From NCBI GenBank assembly GCA_030272155.1, contig CP126193.1, forward strand, positions 1,860,001 to 1,924,000: DNA of 64,000 nt. The letters are read 5' to 3'. Under the pieces are notes generated by a model. The model was given only the letters and a program-made list of their open reading frames with translations, was not told the origin of the DNA and ran no database searches. The DNA comes from Tetradesmus obliquus. Its lineage: Eukaryota; Chlorophyta; Chlorophyceae; Sphaeropleales; Scenedesmaceae. Below are positions 2,508 to 49,770 of the stretch, one piece after another. Each line of letters starts with the position of its first letter. Position 1 is the stretch's first letter. A program made the translations under genes and the position numbers.

Positions 2508-5500
2508 ATGGGGCGCTTGGTGGCTGCTTGCGTGCTTTTGATGGCACTAACCTGCCAAACAGCGCACGCCTGGACATCGAGAATGTACACAGCAGACAGA
2601 ACACGGTGTAATGATGTCAAGCCGAACAGGGCCCCACAGCAGGCTGTAGTCAGTGGCTACCCTGACCCCTGGAGCGTATCTTTGTCCTGGAAGGCGCCTG
2701 GAGGCGCATGTGTGGACTTTTACTACGGTGAGAGTATAAAGATTGGTGCTATTGGACACTCAACGCTACAATCGCCCAGCTGCTGCCAAGAAGGCGGGCG
2801 TTCCATATTGTTCTATGACAGCAGCAGCAGGGATCAGCCTTGATACGTGATGATCAGCACACTTGCCACGTATTGTTAAATATCTGTGGCTGTCTGCAAT
2901 TGCTGGCATCCCGCAAGCTGTGCGCTTTGCAATTCACAGTGTGCTGGTGGCACCAGCAGGGCAGCTGCCCAGGGAGTGTCCCATGACAATCCATATTTCC
3001 ATAACGCACACACCATCAGGCATATGCACACCGCTGCTGCACTCTGCTCACTGCAAGGCCTGATGCTCAGGCATGTGTGCTGTTACTCGCAGCAGGTCAC
3101 TGCTCATTTGCTGGCTCGGGACAAAGGTCCCTTTGCACATGTCTGCTGACAAGAAAACCTCACAGCAAAGCTCATCTGTGCTGATATACAGTGCTGCGTC
3201 TCACATGCACTGCACAAGCCACGCATACGACACCCCTTGGCAACAGCTCGCACAGTGCCACCCGCTGCTGACAGCAATGCATGCAACTGCTCCATGTGTC
3301 AGTCACCCACGCCCACGCCTCAACAGATGTCAAACCAGCAGCAATGCAGAATATGCTGGCGACATTCTCACTATTCTGCTGCCTCGCCTGATTATTTCCT
3401 GCAGTGTTTGTGCGGCCCAGCACCAAGCAGCGGCCAGGCGACAGGGACGCAAAGCCGTACCAGATCCTCACCACGGACCAAAGCAGCATCGTGGTGTACA
3501 ACCTCAAGTCCAGCACACCATACAGGGTGGACATTGTTGCAGTGAACAAGTGGGTGTGCTGGGCGGCTCGTGCATTGTCAGCACGCGCGCAGGCGTACAT
3601 AGCAGGGCAAGTGTGTGTTAGAAGGGAAGGATGGAATTAGGATGTTGCGGAGCCACATCAGGTGTGTTGCACTCCCAGTTGATAACATCTTTTCCTCTGA
3701 ACAGCAGCAGGTACTGCAGCTGGCAGTGTGACTGCAAACCATGTAATTGCAAGGGGTCGTCAAATATGGGATCCTGGATGGATGCACGTTATGCAGTCAC
3801 CATAGTGCATGCCTGGGAAGGAAACAGCAGGCCCAGGCCTGACCTCAGTGTCCCGCAGCTGCCACAGCATGGTGCCGCGGTGAGGCGAAACGCGCTTACT
3901 ATCGAGTTAAAGTGCACATGATGCCAGCTCAAAACCACAGGCAATGCCCTAACATCGCTCCGTCGCTGCGTTGCATGCACATTCTTGTGTGGCTGCAGGC
4001 GCAAAGGCAGGAGCCCATACGCCTCTGTGACTCCCTCCACCCCGCGGGATGCTCGCTTTGATGTGAAGCCATCCGCACCAGCCAAACCAGCAGCAGCACC
4101 AGCAGCAGCAGCAGCAGCACGGCCAAAACAGCCTGCAAAGACACCTGCTCCAGCGCCAGCACGCGCAACACCAGCAGCAGCAGCAGCAGCACCACGGCCG
4201 GCACGCCGCGCAGGCCCCGTGCTGTGGCCCGGATTCATGCCTGTGGGTACAGCCGCTGCCGCGCCAGCAGCTGCTGCCCCTGCAGTGTGCGATCCCAGCC
4301 GGCCGCTGCAAGCGCCTGCAGGCGTCACTGCGGTGTTCCCTGCTGGAGCCAGGGACAGGGCGCAGATCAGGTGGCAGGCCCCGCCCCTGTCGAGCTGCAG
4401 CCTGCAGGGGTACAGGCTGACTGCAGTGGATGCGTCAGGTGAGCCCAGGGCTCGTGTTATTGAAGGTTTTGAGAGTTGAAGCGGTGCCGCATTCACTGCT
4501 CTTCAGCTCACATCCTGGCACATGCGGCAAGTTGACAGGTGGCTTGCAATACTCTTCTGCGGCGGCTGTCATTGACTTCTCTTTGTGTTGTGCCCGTTGT
4601 ATGGCTGCCTTTTCTGCAGGCCCCACTGTGCTCAATACACAGCTGGCGGTCAGCAACTTGCTACTGCCAGATGCTGCTGCTGCTGCTGTCACTAAGCTTT
4701 GTGTTGTGCGCTGCGTGGCTGCGTTTCCTGCAGGCACCACTGTGCTCAATGCGCAGCTGGCGGCCTGCGACACGCTTCTGCCATACGCTGCTGCTGCTGC
4801 TGCTGCTGTCACTAAACTTTGTGTTGTGCGTTGCATGGCTGCGTTTCCTGCAGGCACCACTGTGCTCAATACACAGCTGGCGGTCAGTGAGCGCGACATA
4901 ACCGTGAACAACCTGGGCTTCTACACCAGCTACACCTTCGCGCTGTCGGCCCTCTCGCCAGCCGGCGACGGCGCCGCAGCAAGCGTTGCTGTCAACCCCT
5001 CAACAGGCGGCATTTCTGTCACCGGGGCCAGTTCTGCACCTGCAGCTCGCGCTGCAGAGGTCACCCGGGTGGCTGGTGCAGCAGCGGACAGTGCAGCGCA
5101 GCAGCAGATGCCGCCGCCGGGTCCTATGGACTCGAATGGCGTGCAGAACATGCAGAATGGGGCGAGCTGCCGGGCAGATGTGGAGCCTGCTGCTCCTCAG
5201 GGCTTTGTGGCGACGCCTGATGGTACGGGGAGGATCACTCTGAGCTGGGGCAATAAAGATGCCAGCATCTGCACAGGTGAGCCACTGCTGGTTGTTGTGA
5301 GTTGCAGCAGCTGCAAACACTGCAGGAAGGCAGCCATGACCGGCCGGTTTCTTGATGAAGCAGCATTTGCTGGAGCAGTGAGAGCTGTTTGGTGGCACGT
5401 GGCAGCTGACTCGCTGTTTGTCACTGCGGCATGATCGCTGTGTGGTCACAACTTGCAAGACTTGCACTTGCACTGCAAGTTGTGGTCACAGGAAGACATG

Positions 5501-19120: not shown

Positions 19121-20748
19121 ATGCAGCAAGCTCTGAGGAGCAGGCAGTGCGCTGGCGCACAGGTAAGATTCAAAGCGACCAGCTGCGGCCCAATTGACGC
19201 CGACGCTGATCGCGTCGACCCACACTTGACTGAATCGAGCTAGTGCCGAGCCCTGCCTTAACGCTGCCAAGCTCATTGCCTGAGATCTCACATTTAAATA
19301 TTCTTTGTATTCATCCTTTTACATTTGGCGTGCTGCAGCGCCAGGCCTCCGGCCGCAGTGCCTTCCTAGGGCAGAGGCAGTGCAGCAGCACCCTGACTGC
19401 TGCCCGGGCACAGGGCGTCAGCCGCAAGACCACCGCAAACACACAGGCCAGCTTCCAGAAGGTTCTCATTGCAAACCGTGGCGAGATTGCTGTCAGGATC
19501 ATCCGAGCCTGCAAGGAGCTGGGCCTGCAGACAGTCGCAGTGTACTCCACTGCAGACAAGCAGTCGCTGCATGTGTACGTGAGTGCCAGCACAGCAGTGT
19601 GACCGCAGCAACTCAGAAGTGACATCACACCTGCAGGGACATCGGTGTGAGGGCTGCATGTTGGGGACAGCACTCAATATCTAGTGGTGTGCTGATGTAC
19701 TGTGGTGGTACAGGTTTCGTGCTCTGCGCACTAGCTGCAGTGACGCTGGGGACAGCAGCGGACTGGCAACGTGCTATGCTCGTGCAGCTCGAATGTCCTT
19801 CATTCATGCATAACAACAGCAGAACTTCTGTGCGCTGCTCTGGCATCTATGAGTGTGGAACCTTTGTGCCGCAACGCTGTTACTGGCTTGCCGACATCCC
19901 ACAGCACACCTGCTCACCTTGCTGACCCCGCTGCTGCTGCCGCCGCCACCACCACTGCTGCCGCTGCTGCTGCTGCCGCCACCACCGCTGCTGCTGCTGC
20001 TGCTGCTGCCGCCTGCGCAGCTCGCTGACGAGGCTGTGTGCATTGGCGAGGCGCCCAGCAGCGAGAGCTACCTCAATGTGCCCAACCTGCTGGCAGCAGC
20101 AGTCAGCCGCGGTGCGCAGGCAGTGCACCCGGTGAGGGCCCAGCAGCAGCAGCAGCAGCAGCAGCAGCTGACAGGTGTTCTGTGACAGTTGTTGTGGTCG
20201 GTCGGGTAGTTTGAGAGCATGTCTCGCATGTGCGGCGTTGACAGGGCGCCTGCAGAGGCAGCAGCAGGAAGCAGCGTCCTTTGAAGGTTGTGTATCTTCG
20301 TTGCTGGGTTAGGCGTGGTGCAGTGCTGTGCATAGGCAGTATCTTTAGCAGCAATCAGGGTCAGCTCAGCTGAGAACGATGTCGCTTGCTGCTGAAAGAG
20401 GCCTACTCTTGTCAATGCCCTGGCAACACTGGCTATCTACAGACTGGTTTGTGAAGTACAATGGTCGGCTGCTGCCAGTGCGTTGGGTATGCGGCACTGC
20501 AGCGGCATACATGCCGGCAGCAGCAGCACACTGGTAATGCTAATGTGTGGGGCATGGCACCTCTGGTGCACCGCAGTGCGGTGCTGTCACCAGACAGCGG
20601 CTCGCAGCTAGCTCATGTAGCAAACACTTCAGCTCCGTGCCCCCATCACAACAACAGACCCTTCAGCGCAGATCATTTTGTGACCCTTTTCAAGGGCCTA
20701 TCAACTCCTTGTCTGACGCGCTGCTGCCACCACCACTGCTGCTGCTGC

Positions 20749-20798
<50 letters not shown>

Positions 20799-22463
20799 CA
20801 CACACCAATGCAGGGCTACGGCTTCCTGAGTGAGAACGCGGGCTTTGTGGACATCCACGCTTTGTCCCTCTCCTGACGCGCTGCTGCCACGCTGCTGCTG
20901 CTGCTGCTGCTGCTGCCAGGGCTACGGCTTCCTGAGTGAGAACGCGGGCTTTGTGGACATCTGCGCTGACCACGGCCTGGAGTTCATCGGGCCCAAGCCC
21001 GCACAGATCCGCATGATGGGAGACAAGTCCACAGCACGCGACACCATGAAGGTCCGCCGCTAGTGCCTTGCGCAGTTACGCTGGTTGTTTGCAGAGCGTT
21101 TGGGCATGTGTACGCTTGCCCCTGTCCGTCTGCGTCTGCACCTTCACAGCCTGGGTAGCAGCGGCACCGTGCTGGCATGTAGGCACTGCCGCCGGGCATG
21201 CTGATCCTCTGTCGTGAGCAGCCTGAGCCATGTGCGACCCGCACACTAGGCACGTGCGACCTGCCAAGCAGGCAAATGTGGAGGCCACAGATACGTTATC
21301 GCCGTGGCTGCCCTGCCAGCACACAGCAACACCACCAGCACAGCCCTGCTGCCTGATGCTGTGCTGCCACCTGCTGCTGCTGCTGCTGCTGCTGCGTGCA
21401 GAAAGCCGGCGTACCGACCGTGCCCGGATCTGAGGGCCTCATTCAAGATGAGAAGGATGCGCTGGCGGTGGCTGACGTGGTGGGCTTCCCGCTCATGATC
21501 AAGGCCACGGCAGGTGCGAGGCCACGGCTTGGGGTTTGTGTGGGGTTGTGGTTGAACGGTTCAGGGTTCGGTCAAGGTTTGGGGGTGTGGTTTGGGCGTG
21601 ATGGGCTTGCTGCTCATGATCAAGGCCAGGCCACGGCAGCTTCACCTTGCCACATCCTGCGCTGACACACTAACTGCCTGCTTCTGCCGCCGCTGCTGCC
21701 GCTGCTGCTTCCCCTATCACAGGTGGCGGTGGCCACGGCATGCGCCTGGCCACCAAGCCAGAGGACTCCTGCCGATGCTCAAACCTCCCACTCACCTGAC
21801 CTGCATCCTGCTGCTGCCGCATTTCCTCTCTGCTGCTGCTGCTGCTGCTGCTGCCAGGCGGTGGCGGCCGTGGTATGCGCCTGGCCACCAAGCCGGAGGA
21901 CTTCCTGCCCATGCTCAAGGCGGCGCAGCAGGAGGCGGAGGCGGCCTTTGGCAACGGCGCCGTGTACATCGAGCGCTACGTGCAGAACCCGCGCCACATT
22001 GAGTTCCAGGTGCGAGGGTGAAAGGCAGAAAGTGAAGTCAAGGGACGCATCTATACAGTAAATGCATGTGAACATCGAGTGCTACGTGCAGAACCCGCGC
22101 CACATTGAGTTCCAGGTGCGAGGAGGGTGTGGGAGATGGTGCAAAGTGCACTGGCTGATGCGGTGTTGTCGAATGCCGAACAAGGTTTGGAGAAGCACTG
22201 GTTGGTGGTGCTGAACCAGCGGTACATGGAGTTTCCATTCCAGGTGCAATTGTGGGGGCGCATGGCAGGTTGTGAAGTATGCTGGCTGATGGGGTGTTAC
22301 CACATGCTGCGTGTGCTGCCAGGCTGGACCCCTACAATTTACTGCCGCCTTCTTCTTCTGCTGCTGCTGCTCCCCCTGCCTGTGCTCTCCTTTTCCCAGG
22401 TGCTTGGTGACAAGTTTGGCAACGTGGTGCACCTGGCTTGCCTCCTCCTTAAAGCAGCACTGC

Positions 22464-22505
<42 letters not shown>

Positions 22506-24230
22506 CCCCCGCAGGTGCTTGCGGACAAGTTTGGCAACGTGGTGCACCTGGGCGAGCGCGATTGCTCCATCCAGCGCCGCAACCAGAAGCTGCTGGAGGA
22601 GGCACCCAGCCCAGCACTCACCGAGGACGTGAGTGGCATGACGTCATTTTGTTTGTTATTTGTTACATATTATGTCTTGTTATGCTTTGAATTGCATGGA
22701 CACCTTGTGGAGCCAACACTGAGAGGTCCGGGGATCACGAGGACGCTGCAGAGTTTGCAGCCCTAAGCTTTTGAATATGCTGTGTCTGGCGCAGCGGGTA
22801 AGCGCGCGCTGGTCGACTTGAGCGCGCGCTGGTTGACTTGGCAGCAGCCACATGTACCGCACACCCACGTGCCACCAACGCTGCTGCTGCTACCGCCTGG
22901 CCTGCTGCCTCCTGCTGTATTACACGTCACTGTCAATCCCACAGGTGCGCGAGGCAATGGGTGAGGCTGCGGCAAACCCACCACGCGCGCCGCACACTCA
23001 CGTGCTGCTGCTGCTGCTGCCTGGCCTCCTGCTGCTTTGTGTCTGTTATTGCTGTGTTACAACAGGTGCGCCAGGCGATGGGCGAGGCTGCCGTGAACGC
23101 TGCCCGCGCCATTGGCTACGTGGGCGTGGGCACCATCGAGTTCCTGTGGGAGAAGAAGGGCTTCTACTTCATGGAGATGAACACGCGCATCCAGGTGCGC
23201 TGTTGTGGGGATTATTGAAACACTTATGTTTGACTAGGGTCGTGTGGCCTCAGGATACGGTTATGCGGTTGTGCAGTGACGCTTGGTGCTATGGGAGAAG
23301 AAGGGTTACATATCATGAAGTTGAACAGGCACATCTGGTATGTTCTGTCATATGCTGTGTGGCTGGCTGCTGCTGGTGCGCCACACTGGTGGAGGACTTT
23401 TCAATGGACACGGTCTTGACTTGCTGTTGACCTTGAGTCAACTGCGGCACTTTCAACATGCAACACTGCTGTTGCTGCTGCCGCTGCTGCTGCTGCAGGT
23501 GGAGCACCCTGTCACTGAGATGATCACTGGCGTGGACCTCATCCAGGAGCAGATCAAGGTGGCGCAGGGCCTCAAGCTGCCCTTCACACAGGACGACATC
23601 AAGTTCAAGGTGCGGGGGGCGTGCTGTGATAATGTGTGCTGTTGTGGTGTGGTGTGCGCTGTGGCGGTGTTTCTTGTGGTGTGATCTGGGGTGTGATCTG
23701 GGGTGTGAGGTGTGGCGCAGGGGCTCAAGCTGCCTTGCTCACAGGACGACATCAAGTTCAAGGTGGGCGGCACGGTGTTTGTGCTGTTTGTGCTGGTCTA
23801 TCCTGTTGTGACGTGGTGTGTGCTGTTGTGGTCTGGGGTGTGGGGTGGCGCAGGGCCTCAAGCTGCCCTTCACACAGGACGACATCAAGTTCAAGGTGGG
23901 CGATATGCATTTGTGACTTGCTTTGGGTTTTATGGTAAAGGCTCCTGCTTGCTTTGGTCGTTAGCTACAGCTGCCCTTCACGCAGGACGACATCAAGCTC
24001 AAGGCGGGCGGGGTTTGTTGAGTTGTGGGTCATGTGCAAGGGCTCCTGCTTGCTTTGGTCGTTAGTGTCAACACTTAGCTACAGCTCCCTTTACGGCATC
24101 CTCGTGCAAATGCTGCACCTGCGATCCACCAACAGTCCCACGCGCTGGGCTCTGTGCCTGCCAACATCGAACTAACGCACCCATGTGCTGCTGCCGCCGC
24201 TGCTTCTGCCGTCGCTGCTGCCACACCCAC

Positions 24231-24261
<31 letters not shown>

Positions 24262-24422
24262 TGAGGAGCCCTTCCAGAACTTCCGGCCCGGACCCACTCA
24301 CCAACCAATATCACAACACTGCATCCTTATGCATCTGCAATCAACCAACACTCCCACAAATGGCGCTGCACCTGCAAACATTGACCAACACATCCACGTG
24401 CTGCTGCTGCTGCTGCACCCGC

Positions 24423-24453
<31 letters not shown>

Positions 24454-26787
24454 AGAGGAGCCCTTCCAGAACTTCCGGCCAGGCCCCGGGCGCGTGACCA
24501 CCTACCTGGCCCCTGGCGGCCCGCACGTGCGCATGGACAGCCACCTGTACCCTGACTACCTGGTGCCCCCGAACTACGACTCTCTGCTGGGCAAGCTTAT
24601 TGTGTGGGGCGAGGACAGGGAGAAGGTGCGGCCGGTTCGGTGTGTGCCTTTCCCCTTGTTATTGAGTGCTGTGGAATGGACGGGGAGGCTGTGGCTGATG
24701 ATGTGGGGTGATGATGTGGGACAGCCACCTGTACCCCGACTACCTGGTGCCCCCGAACTATGACTCCCTGCTGGCAAGCTCATCGTGTGGGGCGAGGACA
24801 GGGAGAAGGTGCGGTGCTGTAGATAGTTAAAGTTGCTTGGGTTTTACGTCGTACCCCGACTACCTGGTGCCCCAGGAGTATGGTTCTCTGCTAGGCAAGC
24901 TCAATGGGTGGGGCGAGGACAGGGAGAAGGTGCGGACACATTGATGTTATTTTGGCGTTTTGCTCTGTTGTTGGGGCCACGGGTGCCAGGTGCAGCTTGC
25001 TGGGCAAGGGTGTTGTGTGGGGTGTGGACAGAGCGCAGGTGCCGCCACGGAGGTGTTTTGCATGTTGTGTTGATGTCTAGTTATGTTGCGGCTGGGATGG
25101 GGGCAGCCTGCTAGGTGAACTGAACGAATGAATAAGCTGCGCCTGGTGTGTTCACACTCGACAGCCGCGTAAGTCGAGAAAGGGGACGTGTGTGGCGACG
25201 AGGATACCTCATGCGCCTCCATGCCTCCTACCATCAGGCGAGCTCACCATTTGGGGCAAAAACAGGCAGGAGGTGCAAGCACAGCACAGCATTTCATCAC
25301 TGGATCATTGACGTCTGTTCTGCGTGGACAGACAGCCAGTAGTAAGTTGAGATGCTGTTTCGGCATCCCAGACTACTAGCGGCTGCTGTCTGAACAGAAC
25401 AGACATCAGTGATCCAGAGACAAAATGCTGTGCTTTTCGATGAGGTGCATGCGCACCCTCGGAGCACCCCGCTTGGCGCATGTTTGCACATCGGTGCAGA
25501 TTACTGCAGCTGTGCACAGTCGCACATCCACCTGCTGACCGTCCCGCTGCCGTATGCCTTCTCAAACCACTTTCAACCCTACCGCTCTTTCCAGTGCGCC
25601 AGCGGGCACTTGACGCACTGCCCTGCTGACACATCTGCTGCTGCACGCCCCCGCCCCTTGCGCTACACCTCGGGCTATCACGCGCATGCTGCGCGCGCTG
25701 GATGAGACTGTGATCACTGGTGTGCCCACCACGGGCCCCTTCCACAAGCTCATCCTCAACACTCTACAACAACGGCTTTCAGCGCTACTAACACACCTGC
25801 TGCTGCACGCCTACCCATTGACCACTGCCTTCCTTCCTCAACACCTCCAGTGCCCCAGCGCGCGCTTGACGCACTGCCATGCTGACACTTCTGCTGCTGC
25901 ACGCCTGCGCTCATCAATCATTCATGCATTTCAGGCCATCACCCGCATGCTGCGCGCGCTGGATGAGACGGTCATCACTGGCGTGCCCACCACGGGCCCC
26001 TTCCACAAGCTCATCCTCAACAACGAGGCCTTCAGGGCGGGTGACGTGGACACAGGCTTCATCCCCAAGCACATTGACAGCCTCAGCACGCCGCCACCCA
26101 CCAGCAAGGTGAGGGGAGGGTTTTGTGTGTGACGAATACTGCTTCGGACAACAGCAGCTGTCTTACGCTGCTGAGGACTGACAGTGTTTGGTACGCTGGA
26201 GTCATGGGAGCATGACATGTTTGTGCATGACACTACGGAAAGCGTGCTGTGCGGAAAGCGTGCTGTGCAACAACAAGGGCCAATAGGGCACTGTCAAGTG
26301 AATAAGTTTAGGGTGGATGGGCATATGGACACAGGCTTGATCCCTAAGCACATCGACAGCCTCAACACCCCGCCACCCACCAGCAAGGTGAGGGGCGTCG
26401 CACACGTGTATGATGGTGTCTGCTCGACAGTGGGCTGCTGCTGCCTGTTGCTGCCTGATGCTCCCTTCACACACCCGCCGCCCACCAGCAGGATGAGGGC
26501 AGCGTGACAGCTCTACTCACGCGGTTAGCTGGGCACTGCTCACGATAGGCTTCGTCAAGCGCGCAATGCGTCGCAGCACAGTTGCATGATACTGATGTGC
26601 TAAATGCTCTGGGGACCGCCGGCCTAGGAGAGTGCCAACAGGGCAGCACGAAATGGTGTGACGTTGGTGCAGCGCTCCCAGCTGCGGCAACTGCTCATTA
26701 GTGCAGGCTGGTTAGGGCCCTGCAGTGTGTCAGCTGCGATGCAGCGCGCCGACCACTCTTTGCCACTTTGCTCTGACTGTTGTGCTG

Positions 26788-26830
<43 letters not shown>

Positions 26831-26898
26831 AGGTGAAGCAGTTCCTGAGTGACGTCGTGAAGGCCAAGAAGCCCCGCAGCCCAGTCAGCAGCCGCTAA
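19121..26898 (+). CDS. accC: biotin carboxylase subunit of plastid acetyl-CoA carboxylase
   Basis: Twelve exons: 19121-19162, 19339-19578, 20021-20131, 20920-21051, 21402-21513, 21858-22009, 22515-22628, 23066-23194, 23499-23609, 24425-24625, 25935-26108 and 26833-26898 (527 aa). Residues 1-50 look like a plastid transit peptide (basic, Ser/Ala/Gln-rich). The enzyme starts at [15 protein letters not shown] (53 onward). Further motifs are [11 protein letters not shown], the ATP-grasp loop [33 protein letters not shown] and the active-site [15 protein letters not shown], so all key residues are present. It carboxylates biotin on the carrier protein with ATP and bicarbonate, the first half of malonyl-CoA synthesis. 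There is no biotinyl or carboxyltransferase domain, so this is the heteromeric-type subunit and not a propionyl-CoA or pyruvate carboxylase. The start at 19121 gives a clean spliced transit peptide. Most internal introns carry echoes of exon edges and CTG runs before the acceptors. Confidence 0.97.
19965..20018 (+). repeat. CTG/CCG-rich acceptor tract, accC intron 2
   Basis: A run of CTG with CCG/CCA interruptions fills the end of intron 2, just before the GCGCAG acceptor at 20020, and takes the place of the polypyrimidine tract. Confidence 0.8.
20735..20797 (+). repeat. CTG repeat in accC intron 3
   Basis: About 20 CTG triplets with a CCG interruption, followed by CACACCAATGCAG, the acceptor of the exon 4 echo. 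A second CTG run (about 20891-20916) precedes the true exon 4. Confidence 0.9.
20814..20856 (+). repeat. echo of the accC exon 4 start
   Basis: 43 bases identical to the first 43 of exon 4 (20920 onward), preceded by an acceptor-like ATGCAG, then diverging. The flanking GACGCGCTGCTGCCAC is also duplicated (near 20715 and 20876), so the copied unit spans the intron end plus exon start, about 106 bp. Confidence 0.92.
21598..21640 (+). repeat. echo of the accC exon 5 end
   Basis: Diverged copy of the end of exon 5 (GGGCTTCCCGCTCATGATCA...) plus the start of intron 5; GCTCATGATCAAGGCCA is intact. It lies in the intron immediately downstream. Confidence 0.8.
21719..21782 (+). repeat. echo of the accC exon 6 start
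   Basis: Diverged copy of the intron 5 acceptor and about 60 bases of exon 6, including the Gly-rich ATP-grasp loop codons and ATGCGCCTGGCCACCAAGCC. One base is lost, so it could not encode the protein. Confidence 0.88.
22073..22124 (+). repeat. echo of the accC exon 6 end and donor
   Basis: Nearly exact copy of the last 43 or so bases of exon 6 (TACGTGCAGAACCCGCGCC...) plus its donor GTGCGAGG, about 107 bp downstream of the original. A weaker third copy ending TTCCAGGTGC is at about 22217-22244. Confidence 0.92.
22396..22436 (+). repeat. echo of the accC exon 7 start
   Basis: Acceptor TTTTCCCAG followed by GTGCTTGGTGACAAGTTTGG and on, matching exon 7 (22515 onward) for about 35 bases before it diverges. 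Confidence 0.9.
22470..22503 (+). repeat. CTG repeat before accC exon 7
   Basis: Eleven CTG triplets shortly upstream of the true exon 7 acceptor (CCCCCGCAG). Confidence 0.9.
22940..22985 (+). repeat. echo of the accC exon 8 start
   Basis: Acceptor CCCACAG plus GTGCGCGAGGCAATGGGTGA and on, a diverged copy of the start of exon 8 (23066 onward). Confidence 0.85.
23280..23342 (+). repeat. echo of the accC exon 8 end
   Basis: Diverged copy of the end of exon 8, with GGGAGAAGAAGGG and ATGAAGTTGAACAGGCACAT visible, lying in intron 8. Confidence 0.7.
23711..24006 (+). repeat. three echoes of the accC exon 9 end and donor
   Basis: The 3' part of exon 9 (CAGGACGACATCAAGTTCAA followed by G and a GTG donor, original to 23609) recurs at 23711-23764, 23843-23896 and 23966-24004. 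The first two keep a GTGGGC donor; in the third the donor GT is GC and TTC has become CTC. Spacing is about 125-155 bp. Confidence 0.95.
24228..24297 (+). repeat. echo of the accC exon 10 start
   Basis: Acceptor CCCACAG and the first 60 or so bases of exon 10 (GGCCACGCCATCGAGTGCCG and on) with one or two changes, ending where it runs into duplicated intron sequence before the true exon at 24425. Confidence 0.95.
24718..25042 (+). repeat. graded echoes of the accC exon 10 end and donor
   Basis: Copy 1 (about 24718-24808) is close to the original but lacks one base. Copy 2 (about 24850-24931) has more changes. Copy 3 (about 24970-25038) is barely recognisable (GGGCAAGG, TGTGTGGGGTGTGGACAG). 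All keep the exon-end/donor layout AGAAGGTGCGG or a remnant. Confidence 0.9.
25590..25765 (+). repeat. echo of the accC exon 11 start with upstream intron
   Basis: Bases 25590-25765 repeat intron 10 end sequence (GACGCACTGCC, GCTGACAC, TGCTGCTGCACGCC) plus about 90 bases of exon 11 (ATGCTGCGCGCGCTGGATGA and on). The original unit lies at about 25855-26022, giving a period near 260 bp. Confidence 0.93.
26314..26497 (+). repeat. two echoes of the accC exon 11 end and donor
   Basis: Copy 1 (about 26314-26395) matches the last 70 bases of exon 11 and its GTGAGG donor well. Copy 2 (about 26464-26497) is short, keeping CCGCCGCCCACCAGCA and a broken donor. Confidence 0.92.
26790..26831 (+). repeat. 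CTG repeat before accC exon 12
   Basis: Fourteen CTG triplets; the last runs directly into the CTGCAG acceptor of exon 12. Confidence 0.92.
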
Positions 26899-34373: not shown

Positions 34374-35298
34374 CACACAGAGGTTTTTCATGGGGTTGAA
34401 CCTCATTTGAGTGACAGCCCGAGCTGAGCTGTCTGCAGCTTCAAATCCTTTCAGGTGTTAGTGGTGGCGTATGCCGCGTGAGTACACCAGTGTAACCCCT
34501 CCCTCTCTCTCCCTCAGCCATTCATTTGATTTCCTGTGTTTTCCTGTGTTTTCGGGTGTTCGTTGCAACGTAGTTGCCTGTGCACACCGTGTAACCCCTC
34601 TTCTTCTTCTTCTTCTTCCCTCAGCCATTCATGCTGAGGGTGCTGGATTGGATGCATCTGAGTCATCTGCGACGTTCCAGGATTTCGGGTGTTCGTTGCA
34701 ACGTAGTTGCCTGTGCACACCGTGTAACCCCTCTTCTTCATTGGATGCATCTTGTGGCTTGCTATCGGGTTCTCATGATATGTGAGCTGAAAGAGGGGCA
34801 AGTGACGCGCTCTAGGGCGATAGCTTGCCCACCCCTGTAACAGACCTCTCTCTCCATAGCCACGGGGTTCTTCCTCTTCACCCTCAGCCATGTGTGTTGT
34901 TCTGGGGATTCAGCCCGCCCGCTGCACTGCAAAAAGTGCAGCTTGCTGTCACTGACACTGTTTACACTAGTCCTACCGTTGTTTAGCATCAACACTGCGT
35001 GTGCTGTGACTGACGGCTTTGCCCGCGAGGCCATATGTCAAGTTACACACACAGAGAGACTTTCTGGGGTGAGTCTCCTTGAGTGACAGCCTGTTTTGCT
35101 GAGTCATCTGCGGCGTTCCAGATTACCGGGTGTTCGTTGCAACGTAGTTGCCTGTGCACACCGTGTAACCCCTCTTCTTCCCTCGGCCACAAGCCTCTCT
35201 CCCTCAGCCTCTGTGCACACCGTGTAACCCCTCTTCTTCCCTCAGCCTCTGTACTTCGGTCAGGCTTGTTGGTGTATGTGAGCTGAAAGAGGGGCAAG
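34374..35298. repeat. diverged repeat field
   Basis: A unit with GGGTGTTCGTTGCAACGTAG, then a CTGTGCACACCGTGTAACCC block and a CTTCTTC/CCTCAGCC run, occurs at about 34553-34625, 34686-34745 and 35128-35185, with a half copy at 35209-35247. GTGAGCTGAAAGAGGGGCAA occurs at 34782 and 35278, and a GAGTGACAGCC block at about 34410 and 35080. Copies are ordered, so a larger segment of about 600-700 bp was duplicated and then diverged. Confidence 0.8.
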
Positions 35299-40514: not shown

Positions 40515-45804
<5,290 letters not shown>

Positions 45805-49374: not shown

Positions 49375-49770
49375 CCCTTTTGTAACACAATGATGTCCTC
49401 CTGCGTGCCTGCCTCACACAACCAGTAGCATGTATGAACAGCCTGCTTGCACGCAACTGACCCTAGTCGCTCTGTCTGCAACTCCGCCTGCTTCATCTAA
49501 CTCCTTCTGCTCATCACCCACCCGCAGGTCAAGGGCGACCTGTGGAAGACAGCCGCCTTCATCGACGCCTGCCAGCTGCCCTACATCGCGCCCAGCCTGG
49601 GTGGTGTGGAGAGCCTGATCGAGCAGCCCACCGTGATCAGCTACTGGGACCAGGGGCCCGAGAAGCGCGCCGAGATCGGCATCAAGGACAACCTGGTGCG
49701 CTTCTCGTGCGGCGTGGAGGACCTTGAGGACATCTGGGCAGACATGGCGCAGGCGTTGGACCAGATTTGA
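46005..49770 (+). CDS. CGS1: cystathionine gamma-synthase (plastid, methionine biosynthesis)
   Basis: Six exons: 46005-46413, 46874-47267, 47757-48024, 48523-48629, 49147-49285 and 49528-49770 (519 aa). The first 110 or so residues are Ser/Gln/Ala-rich and look like a plastid transit peptide. The PLP-dependent Cys/Met-metabolism fold follows: STYTFKNTAELIAYQEGR, SFEYGRYGNPTARVVEEKI, SSGMCSATTMLLALVP, TTTDCYRRTRQF and the PLP-lysine loop HSATKYLAGHNDVLAG (Lys335). The TDCYRRTR, VLPKMGI and VIDPADI signature matches plant cystathionine gamma-synthase better than beta-lyase or methionine gamma-lyase. The enzyme joins O-phosphohomoserine and cysteine to cystathionine. I do not see the plant MTO1 regulatory peptide, so translation-arrest control is not indicated. 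Echoes of exon 3 flank it, and the stop-codon region is duplicated at 49841-49900. Confidence 0.97.
47571..47650 (+). repeat. echo of the cystathionine gamma-synthase exon 3 start
   Basis: Intron end (GCAGCATGACAC, CTTCCGCAG) and exon start (GGCGCTGGAGCAGAACAA) are duplicated about 127 bp upstream of the true acceptor at 47756, then diverge. Confidence 0.93.
48111..48195 (+). repeat. echo of the exon 3 end plus CAG run
   Basis: GCCTGGTGGAGCAGGCGCGG copies the exon 3 end and donor of the synthase (original about 48010-48030), with the donor GT changed to GC. The following CAG run (48150-48194) mirrors the CAGCAGCAG after the original donor, expanded. Confidence 0.85.
49303..49372 (+). repeat. 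CTG repeat in cystathionine gamma-synthase intron 5
   Basis: About 23 CTG/TTG triplets shortly after the exon 5 donor. Confidence 0.92.

What the first reader, a model, noticed from the sequence alone, without database searches (positions are those of the whole stretch)
19121..26898. Exon echoes: introns of the biotin carboxylase gene are filled with truncated copies of neighbouring exon edges
At least nine of the eleven introns contain partial copies of the adjacent exon with its splice site. Donor-edge copies always lie downstream of their exon and acceptor-edge copies always upstream, with spacing of about 100-260 bp and intron sequence copied too. This fits repeated tandem duplication of exon-intron boundary segments. 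It could be a source of new introns and alternative exons, relating to the known model of intron gain by tandem duplication of AGGT-containing sequence, but here it is found at most boundaries of one gene. I know of no named description of it as a gene-wide pattern.
Basis: partly seen in the sequence, partly recalled or inferred. Interest (0 to 1): 0.9.

Follow-up and report, generated by a model that had tools for sequence, protein, structure and literature searches.

The report
Exon-edge copies inside algal introns
In what looks like a green-alga genome, introns often hold a broken copy of the edge of the neighbouring exon, almost always on the side that leaves the gene intact, and many copies look as if they came from a diverged version of the gene rather than from a fresh local duplication.

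Summary
The gene is a 12-exon accC-type biotin carboxylase. It is not special to this gene. Of 97 called exons in the window and sample, 27 tails have a copy in the downstream intron and 18 heads in the upstream intron; 0 of 194 wrong-side tests hit. The sidedness fits selection: only duplications that leave the working splice site intact survive.

Fresh tandem duplication with neutral decay fits poorly. By the same score the intron just past the donor has a copy in 2 of 80 cases, against 26 of 101 exon tails, although 28 of 49 pairs keep weak intron similarity. Echoes without change at constrained codon sites still differ at 17% of four-fold sites. Simulated identical-born duplication misses these values; birth from a diverged functional homologue comes close. 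Echoes then decay about neutrally; no use as exons or new introns was found, but RNA was not available. Best reading: dead-on-arrival edge copies templated by a diverged allele. A haplotype-chimeric assembly cannot be excluded without reads.

The parts
19121..26898 (+). accC-type biotin carboxylase gene, 12 exons (19121-19162, 19339-19578, 20021-20131, 20920-21051, 21402-21513, 21858-22009, 22515-22628, 23066-23194, 23499-23609, 24425-24625, 25935-26108, 26833-26898), 527 aa
   Evidence: spliced translation, all introns GT-AG; TIGR00514 775.9 bits
20811..20861 (+). acceptor-edge echo of exon 4, in intron 3, 96% over 51 bp, spacing 106
21597..21633 (+). donor-edge echo of exon 5, in intron 5, 86% over 37 bp, spacing 121
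21693..21782 (+). acceptor-edge echo of exon 6, in intron 5, 81% over 91 bp, spacing 137
22068..22123 (+). donor-edge echo of exon 6, in intron 6, 96% over 56 bp, spacing 106
22347..22436 (+). acceptor-edge echo of exon 7, in intron 6, 80% over 90 bp, spacing 115
22880..22988 (+). acceptor-edge echo of exon 8, in intron 7, 71% over 109 bp, spacing 124
   Evidence: score 24
23291..23345 (+). weak donor-edge echo of exon 8, in intron 8 (limits approximate, read by eye)
   Evidence: score 25; sequence
23712..23769 (+). donor-edge echo 1 of exon 9, in intron 9, spacing 153
23844..23898 (+). donor-edge echo 2 of exon 9, 100% over 55 bp, spacing 286
23964..24020 (+). donor-edge echo 3 of exon 9, 85% over 52 bp, spacing 394
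24207..24295 (+). acceptor-edge echo of exon 10, in intron 9, 90% over 89 bp, spacing 192; coding differences 3 synonymous, 0 non-synonymous
24719..24814 (+). donor-edge echo 1 of exon 10, in intron 10, 94%, spacing 184; 5 synonymous and 0 non-synonymous differences plus a 1-bp deletion
24851..24935 (+). donor-edge echo 2 of exon 10, 87%, spacing 304, with amino-acid-position changes
24998..25046 (+). donor-edge echo 3 of exon 10, 82%, spacing 413; a possible fourth remnant (61%) at 25232-25280
25590..25761 (+). acceptor-edge echo of exon 11, in intron 10, about 85% over 177 bp including about 90 bp of intron, spacing 256
26326..26395 (+). donor-edge echo of exon 11, in intron 11, 93% over 70 bp, spacing 279; short further match at 26475-26505

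Best explanation
Exon echoes are remnants of short back-step duplications (nearest echo at 79-279 bp in 66 of 67 edges, mode 100-150) that occur across this genome. SHOWN: they are direct copies; they straddle the edge of an exon (or of the coding sequence at a stop codon); the copy lies in the adjacent intron on the harmless side (0 of 194 wrong-side hits in the edge test, 87 of 95 in the list of repeat pairs); 49 of 60 keep the splice dinucleotide on the outer end and the inner end shows no excess of splice signals; within arrays they change about neutrally. INFERRED from the sidedness: duplications that would disrupt an exon, or leave the working splice site less than about 43 nt of its own intron, are removed by selection. 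INFERRED, main mechanistic step: the duplicated piece is often not a fresh copy of the exon beside it but comes from a diverged, previously functional version of the same gene (another allele, haplotype or homoeologue), for example when a break in the intron is repaired by copying from the homologous chromosome past the exon edge and is then closed by end joining. This would explain why exon parts are conserved at amino-acid positions and in the splice consensus while silent sites and introns are already far diverged, and why intron-only copies are scarce.
For: Genome-wide and sided: tail vs downstream intron 27/97, head vs upstream 18/97, wrong sides 0/97 and 0/97, unrelated introns 3/276; second test 26/101 and 16/96, unrelated 0/97 and 0/90. 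Direct not inverted: 233 direct and 6 inverted pairs within 1 kb in 240 kb. Intron side much less alike: intron 8-53 nt past the donor has a copy in 2/80; identity profile for donors with exon identity >=0.9 (n=22): 0.95 in the last 10 exon bases, 0.89 at +3..+6, 0.62 at +7..+9, 0.50 at +10..+12, 0.43 at +13..+16. Coding-type divergence: in 65 pairs (one per edge) four-fold sites differ at 159/676, constrained sites at 150/2238; the 17 pairs with no constrained-site change (0/567) still differ at 30/176 four-fold sites; identical-born neutral model lnL -262.6 against -242.0 with a birth offset of 0.14. Dead after birth: echo-specific changes by codon position [5,9,9] and [27,17,25]; splice dinucleotide lost in 11 of 60. 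Simulation at similar tail-echo rates (0.21, 0.22): identical birth predicts donor-adjacent intron copies 0.28, intron pieces 0.44, zero-N third-position difference 0.03; diverged birth predicts 0.024, 0.024 and 0.16; observed 0.025 and 0.10, 0.17 at four-fold sites. Spacing: 0 of 59 echoes leave <43 nt of intron, 17.9 expected under uniform placement of the same units.
Against: No second copy of the gene was found in this assembly (other scored matches <=68% identity), and the stretch with echo 1 of exon 10 matched only its own boundary, so the supposed source is not seen. The implied divergence (four-fold about 0.14, introns perhaps 0.2-0.3) is very large for alleles. A model in which silent sites of the exon evolve 3.25 times faster than the dead copy fits almost as well (lnL -243.4 vs -242.0), though I know no cause for it. 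The silent excess is clear only in the more similar pairs (synonymous fraction 0.65 at identity >=0.87); at 0.8-0.87 and <0.8 it is 0.48 and 0.46, not different from the neutral 0.43 (p 0.10 and 0.27). In 28 of 49 pairs intron parts still align better than shuffles, and some pairs look born identical (L022, L026). Intron pieces farther in do have copies (28/285 beyond 188 nt from both ends, 9/76 at 98-143 from the donor), more than the diverged-birth simulation gives. Echo-echo differences are 46 S: 67 N, more synonymous than the 0.28 expected, so some constraint after birth is not excluded. Two hand-set rates per model were simulated. Exons outside this gene come from a home-made gene finder.
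Confidence: 0.42

Rival explanations
1. Plain local tandem duplication of exon-intron boundary segments on one chromosome (slippage, paired nicks, Pol alpha-primase fill-in and end joining), followed by neutral decay and purging of duplications that disrupt exons.
For: Direct orientation, sidedness, arrays at one boundary; intron parts align better than shuffles (z>=3) in 28 of 49 pairs, clearly so for the exon 11 acceptor echo, L022 (100%/100%) and an L013 minus-strand acceptor (85%); less similar pairs are compatible with neutral decay. Published boundary-crossing tandem duplication (PMC4974935, abstract) and small tandem duplications by Pol alpha-primase (PMC8355091, abstract).
Against: Predicts intron-side copies as often as exon-side copies and many intron-internal duplicates: simulated 0.28 and 0.44 at the higher rate (0.14 and 0.25 at the lower), observed 2/80 and 28/285. 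Predicts little silent divergence when constrained sites are unchanged: simulated 0.03-0.04, observed 0.17. Only 7 of 132 repeat components with spacing >=80 bp are >=97% identical.
Confidence: 0.25
2. Assembly artefact: a pseudo-haplotype assembly of a strongly heterozygous or hybrid diploid in which the path steps back from one haplotype to the other at exon edges.
For: Exon parts of the most similar pairs look like a comparison of two haplotypes (conserved amino-acid positions, diverged silent sites and introns); the spacing mode of 100-150 bp is close to a short-read length (inference).
Against: No N in the window; echoes of graded decay at one boundary with amino-acid-position changes (exon 10); no echo leaves <43 nt of intron (0 of 59); the 12 exons of this gene are intact. 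So many switches in a 17-contig assembly would be hard to produce (inference).
Confidence: 0.18
3. The echoes are functional now: alternative exon ends, decoy or recursive splice sites under selection.
For: Outer splice dinucleotides mostly kept (31/36 donors, 18/24 acceptors) with scores close to the real ones; amino-acid positions conserved in the most similar pairs; the minimum spacing of about 43 nt resembles a minimal intron; echo-echo differences 46 S: 67 N.
Against: Inner ends have no excess of splice signals (acceptor-like 0.31 vs 0.36 control, n=36; donor-like 0.25 vs 0.21, n=24); 4 of 22 echoes with identity >=0.93 have lost the GT or AG; a frameshifting 1-bp deletion in exon 10 echo 1; echo-specific changes are spread over codon positions.
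Confidence: 0.1

Closest known systems
Boundary-crossing tandem duplication in the potato RdRp gene (PMC4974935; abstract and outline seen)
   Same: A duplication that crosses an intron-exon boundary inside a gene.
   Different: There it created one new intron in one gene; here copies occur at 27 of 97 exon tails and 18 of 97 heads, decay about neutrally, and no new intron is evident.
[quoted passage not shown] Drosophila cases PMC2891723, abstract and outline seen)
   Same: Short intragenic direct duplication next to splice-site-like sequence.
   Different: The model needs exon-internal duplication and new splice sites at the copies' inner ends; here the duplications cross existing boundaries and inner ends carry no excess of splice signals.
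Small tandem duplications by CST/Pol alpha-primase fill-in and end joining (PMC8355091; abstract and outline seen)
   Same: Candidate DNA-repair source of short direct duplications.
   Different: A local fill-in should give identical copies (my inference); many echoes look diverged at birth.
Allodiploid hybrid alga with mitotic recombination (Auxenochlorella, PMC12636532; 12 passages seen)
   Same: A green alga with two diverged haplotypes whose recombination leaves mosaics.
   Different: Divergence between parental types there is about 2.7-2.8% on the chromosome quoted, far below what the echoes imply; exon-edge copies were not mentioned in the passages seen.

Membership tests
Local tandem (direct) duplication | Copies in direct orientation at short distance | tested here: met
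   233 direct vs 6 inverted pairs within 1 kb in 24 stretches of 10 kb
Local tandem (direct) duplication | The whole unit, intron part included, is copied and decays evenly | tested here: inconclusive
   against: intron 8-53 past the donor 2/80 vs exon tail 26/101, identity falls from 0.95 to 0.43 across the donor; for: intron parts align better than shuffles in 28 of 49 pairs. So copied at least in part, but not decayed evenly
Intron gain by AGGT tandem duplication | New splice sites at the inner ends of the copies and a new intron between them | tested here: not met
   no excess of acceptor or donor signals at inner ends, n=36 and 24; RNA not available
Alternative or mutually exclusive exons | Copy bounded by both splice sites and maintained as coding | tested here: not met
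   no excess of splice signals at the inner end; echo-specific changes about neutral; RNA not available
Introner or transposable element | Same sequence dispersed in unrelated introns | tested here: not met
   exon edges match unrelated introns in 2/1314; the one echo searched against the whole genome matched only its own boundary
Haplotype-chimeric assembly | No single molecule carries exon and echo | not testable with these tools
   no reads held; indirect evidence against: graded decay and splicing-compatible spacing

The most novel reading that the evidence does not exclude
Introns of this genome are an archive of exon edges from a second, diverged and now unseen version of each gene. DNA repair between diverged homologues drops exon-edge footprints into introns again and again, so that introns record hybridisation or long-lasting allelic divergence, and this process, filtered by splicing constraint, is a main source of intron sequence and growth.
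Probability: 0.3. Interest if true: 0.85.

Novelty: new variant of a known kind. Interest (0 to 1): 0.62.

Why it matters
Where intron sequence comes from is largely unknown. Among the exons sampled here about a quarter of tails and a fifth of heads have a visible copy in the adjacent intron, so local copying looks like a major and datable source of intron sequence in this genome. If the copies come from diverged homologues, introns would hold a readable record of past haplotypes or hybridisation, and a repair process otherwise hard to see could be measured genome-wide.

Tried and rejected
A placement test against random positions (71 repeat components in 25 genes; one-boundary 38 vs 20.0 expected, intron-only 11 vs 32.5, exonic 16 vs 12.0, multi 6 vs 6.5) was kept only as a first look, because it mixes ascertainment with biology. 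First gene-finder versions were discarded: too many tiny exons, then too few. The edge test with windows of up to 100 nt gave wrong-side hits at score >=24: 12/116 for acceptor edges and 3/116 for donor edges; I put this down to head and tail windows overlapping in short exons, and with 45-nt windows in exons >=100 bp there are 0/97 and 0/97. Gene conversion between exon and echo was considered and rejected by argument, because it should not stop at the splice site. GC3 or CpG mutation bias was tested as a cause of the silent-site excess: with the measured spectrum the expected synonymous fraction is 0.43-0.45, observed 0.55 overall and 0.65 for identity >=0.87, so it does not explain it. A first, smaller simulation was replaced. 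Four searches built on my guess that the alga is a Tetradesmus or Scenedesmus listed no paper on its genome.

Rows dropped: of 95 exon-echo pairs with >=25 aligned exon bases, 8 did not follow the side rule and were left out of the codon analyses. Three of them involve called exons of 27-39 bp; five involve called exons of 66-92 bp matched over nearly their whole length, which may be copies themselves. In one search one of 50 pairs gave no row. In one search first positions of codons starting with CT, CG, AG or TT were excluded. The gene finder called several echo pieces as mini-exons, so exon sets outside the carboxylase gene, whose model was fixed by translation, contain errors of that kind.
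Full report
WHAT IS THERE. The window is G000:C3:1860001-1924000 of a 104.66-Mb genome in 17 contigs. The gene at 19121-26898 encodes a 527-aa protein in 12 exons with GT-AG introns throughout. It scores 775.9 bits against TIGR00514 (accC, cut-off 626.5), matching residues 53-495; the N-terminal extension suggests a plastid transit peptide (inference). Direct repeats join exon edges to the adjacent introns. With exon-edge windows of up to 100 nt aligned to their own intron (score >=24), 12 of 21 tested edges and 8 of 11 introns carry an echo. Over all 274 tested edges the same score was reached in 0 of 274 reverse-complemented own introns and 2 of 1314 unrelated introns.

IT IS GENOME-WIDE. 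21 of 24 hold direct repeats within 1 kb, 233 pairs in all, against 6 inverted pairs. Exons were called with a home-made splice-aware finder trained from the carboxylase gene and iterated; the setting used here gave 205 exons in 315 kb (window, 24 stretches, and L033-L034, which were chosen as carboxylase relatives and not at random) and none in order-3 Markov controls. It is specific rather than sensitive. In 97 called exons of >=100 bp, with 45-nt windows and score >=20: tail against downstream intron 27, head against upstream intron 18, tail against upstream 0, head against downstream 0, exon middle 1 (upstream) and 6 (downstream), random intron pieces 13 of 164, unrelated introns 3 of 276. 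Without the carboxylase gene: 21/87, 12/87, 0/87, 0/87. The carboxylase gene has the highest share (12 of 21 edges) among 19 genes with at least 6 tested edges; 8 of the 19 have none. Seven of 67 edges with echoes are not splice sites; five of these are stop-codon ends with the copy in the following sequence, so splicing is not needed for an echo to arise.

GEOMETRY AND SELECTION. The side rule is what a back-step duplication must obey if the gene is to survive: a copy of a donor edge downstream, or of an acceptor edge upstream, leaves the working exon whole. Among repeat pairs it holds in 49 of 50 (one pair per component) and 87 of 95. Spacing from exon to nearest echo is 79-279 bp in 66 of 67 edges with a mode at 100-150 bp; all direct pairs together show a second group at 210-270 bp. 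The intron part between working splice site and echo is never below 43 nt in 59 pairs, where uniform placement of the same units (exon part 25-130 nt) would give 17.9 cases; in the wider set one of 67 had 35 nt. On the acceptor side this could reflect the need to keep the branch point and the CTG tract; for donors I have no firm explanation. Both are inference.

WHY FRESH TANDEM DUPLICATION IS NOT ENOUGH. (1) In 111 introns between confident exons, 26 of 101 exon tails and 16 of 96 exon heads have a copy in the intron, but only 2 of 80 intron pieces at +8..+53 from the donor and 4 of 62 at the same distance from the acceptor do; unrelated introns 0 throughout. Pieces farther in do have copies: 5/86, 9/76 and 5/55 in the next three bins from the donor, 7/92, 2/78 and 2/58 from the acceptor, 28/285 beyond 188 nt from both ends; some of these may be echo against echo. 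A tandem unit with at least 43 nt of intron must contain much of the +8..+53 piece. (2) The identity profile falls from 0.95 (last 10 exon bases) to 0.86-0.89 (+1..+6), 0.62 (+7..+9), 0.50 (+10..+12) and 0.43 (+13..+16) in 22 donor pairs with exon identity >=0.9; 11 such acceptor pairs behave alike; unrelated donors give 0.26-0.29 beyond +7. So there is homology past the splice site, strongly diverged: in a gapped comparison 28 of 49 pairs keep intron similarity at z>=3, partly in CTG/CAG tracts, and 21 do not. (3) Exon and echo differ like two working genes. In 65 pairs, one per edge, constrained codon sites differ at 150/2238 and four-fold sites at 159/676. Seventeen pairs have no constrained-site difference (0/567) yet 30/176 at four-fold sites. 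A model of identical birth plus equal neutral rates is rejected (lnL -262.6). A constant birth offset of 0.14 at four-fold sites (lnL -242.0) or exon silent sites 3.25 times faster than the echo (lnL -243.4) fit about equally. Printed alignments show it directly, including a CGG/AGG arginine pair. Measured mutation spectra do not produce the excess. The excess is carried by the more similar pairs; at identity below 0.87 the synonymous fraction (0.48, 0.46) does not differ from neutral. (4) Few pairs are fresh: 7 of 132 components with spacing >=80 bp are >=97% identical, against 5 of 14 with shorter spacing.

SIMULATION. Forward simulations with purging of exon-disrupting duplications, neutral decay and intron turnover were run for two models at two rates each. 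Identical birth at the higher rate (tail echoes 0.21) predicts donor-adjacent intron copies 0.28, intron pieces 0.44, zero-N third-position difference 0.03 and intron identity 0.72-0.83 from +7 to +22; at the lower rate (tail 0.11) 0.14, 0.25, 0.04 and 0.77-0.89. Birth with 30% intron and 16% third-position divergence (tail 0.22) predicts 0.024, 0.024, 0.16 and 0.32-0.47; at its higher rate (tail 0.17, head 0.28) 0.024, 0.033, 0.19 and 0.33-0.50. Observed: 0.025 and 0.10 (0.08), 0.17 at four-fold sites, and 0.42-0.62. The second model is much closer, though observed introns are more alike than simulated and intron pieces are copied more often, which points to less than 30% divergence at birth or to a mixture with identical births. 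Parameters were set by hand and not searched. A smaller earlier run showed that discordant intron parts can also arise by turnover after identical birth, so point (2) alone is weaker than points (1) and (3) together.

AFTER BIRTH. In arrays with several echoes of one edge, echo-specific changes fall on codon positions [5,9,9] (identity >=0.90) and [27,17,25] (lower), S:N 9:14 and 23:45, so echoes change roughly neutrally; changes shared by all echoes (exon-specific or older) are [4,4,14]. Echo-echo differences are 46 S: 67 N, more synonymous than the neutral 0.28, which leaves room for some constraint or for copies from different alleles. Outer splice dinucleotides are kept in 31/36 donors and 18/24 acceptors; inner ends show no excess of splice signals. 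So the data give no support for echoes as alternative exons or new introns; RNA could still show low-level use.

WHERE THE COPIES COME FROM. Similarity that drops at the splice site, a conserved splice consensus and conserved amino-acid positions together suggest that both copies spent much of their divergence as working exon edges. Inner ends show no splice signal and several echoes are visibly dead, so that time was most likely before the echo was made, in another allele, haplotype or homoeologue. In this assembly no such second copy of the gene was found (other scored matches <=68% identity), and the 132-nt stretch with echo 1 of exon 10 matched only its own boundary. The proposed step (repair from a diverged homologue that copies past the exon edge and is closed by end joining) is inference. 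A chimeric assembly of two haplotypes would look similar for the young echoes; graded decay at one boundary, the minimum-intron rule and intact exons speak against it, but only reads can decide.

LITERATURE. Single cases of duplications crossing an intron-exon boundary or creating introns are published (PMC4974935 abstract and outline; PMC2891723 abstract and outline; PMC3443670 passages). Searches with terms on intron gain, boundary duplication, exon fragments and green algae (only the listings were seen, 20 of 482 and 15 of 92 hits, 0 hits) listed no genome-wide description of sided exon-edge copies. The library lacks most subscription papers, so this absence is weak. Gao and Lynch's work on internal gene duplication is recalled, not read.

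Noticed in passing
window 49528-49770; L013, L014, L026 terminal exons: Echoes also occur at stop-codon ends of coding sequences, with the copy in the sequence that follows (five edges), so the pattern is not limited to splice sites.
   Followed up: partly
window 19900-26840, introns: Many acceptors of the carboxylase gene are preceded by CTG-rich tracts where a polypyrimidine tract would be expected.
   Followed up: no
L033 4912-5438 (minus-strand gene): A 144-bp period array of exon-like copies (93%); in one setting the gene finder called several of the copies as small exons.
   Followed up: partly
window 4545-4890, 34550-35247, 42236-42485: Further local direct-repeat clusters in the window; the last is an exon-edge echo of another called gene, the first two were not examined.
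   Followed up: partly
L024 4115-6039: A long local duplication (aligned about 1.6 kb, 91%, offset 340-370 bp), unlike the short echoes.
   Followed up: no
all sampled stretches: Spacing of direct repeats is bimodal (about 90-150 and 210-270 bp, trough at 160-200), which could hint at a chromatin or repair length scale.
   Followed up: no
window 22515, 23066 and their echoes: Exons 7 and 8 begin with GTG after the acceptor AG, so their acceptor echoes may read AG|GT and could act as recursive splice points; not tested.
   Followed up: no
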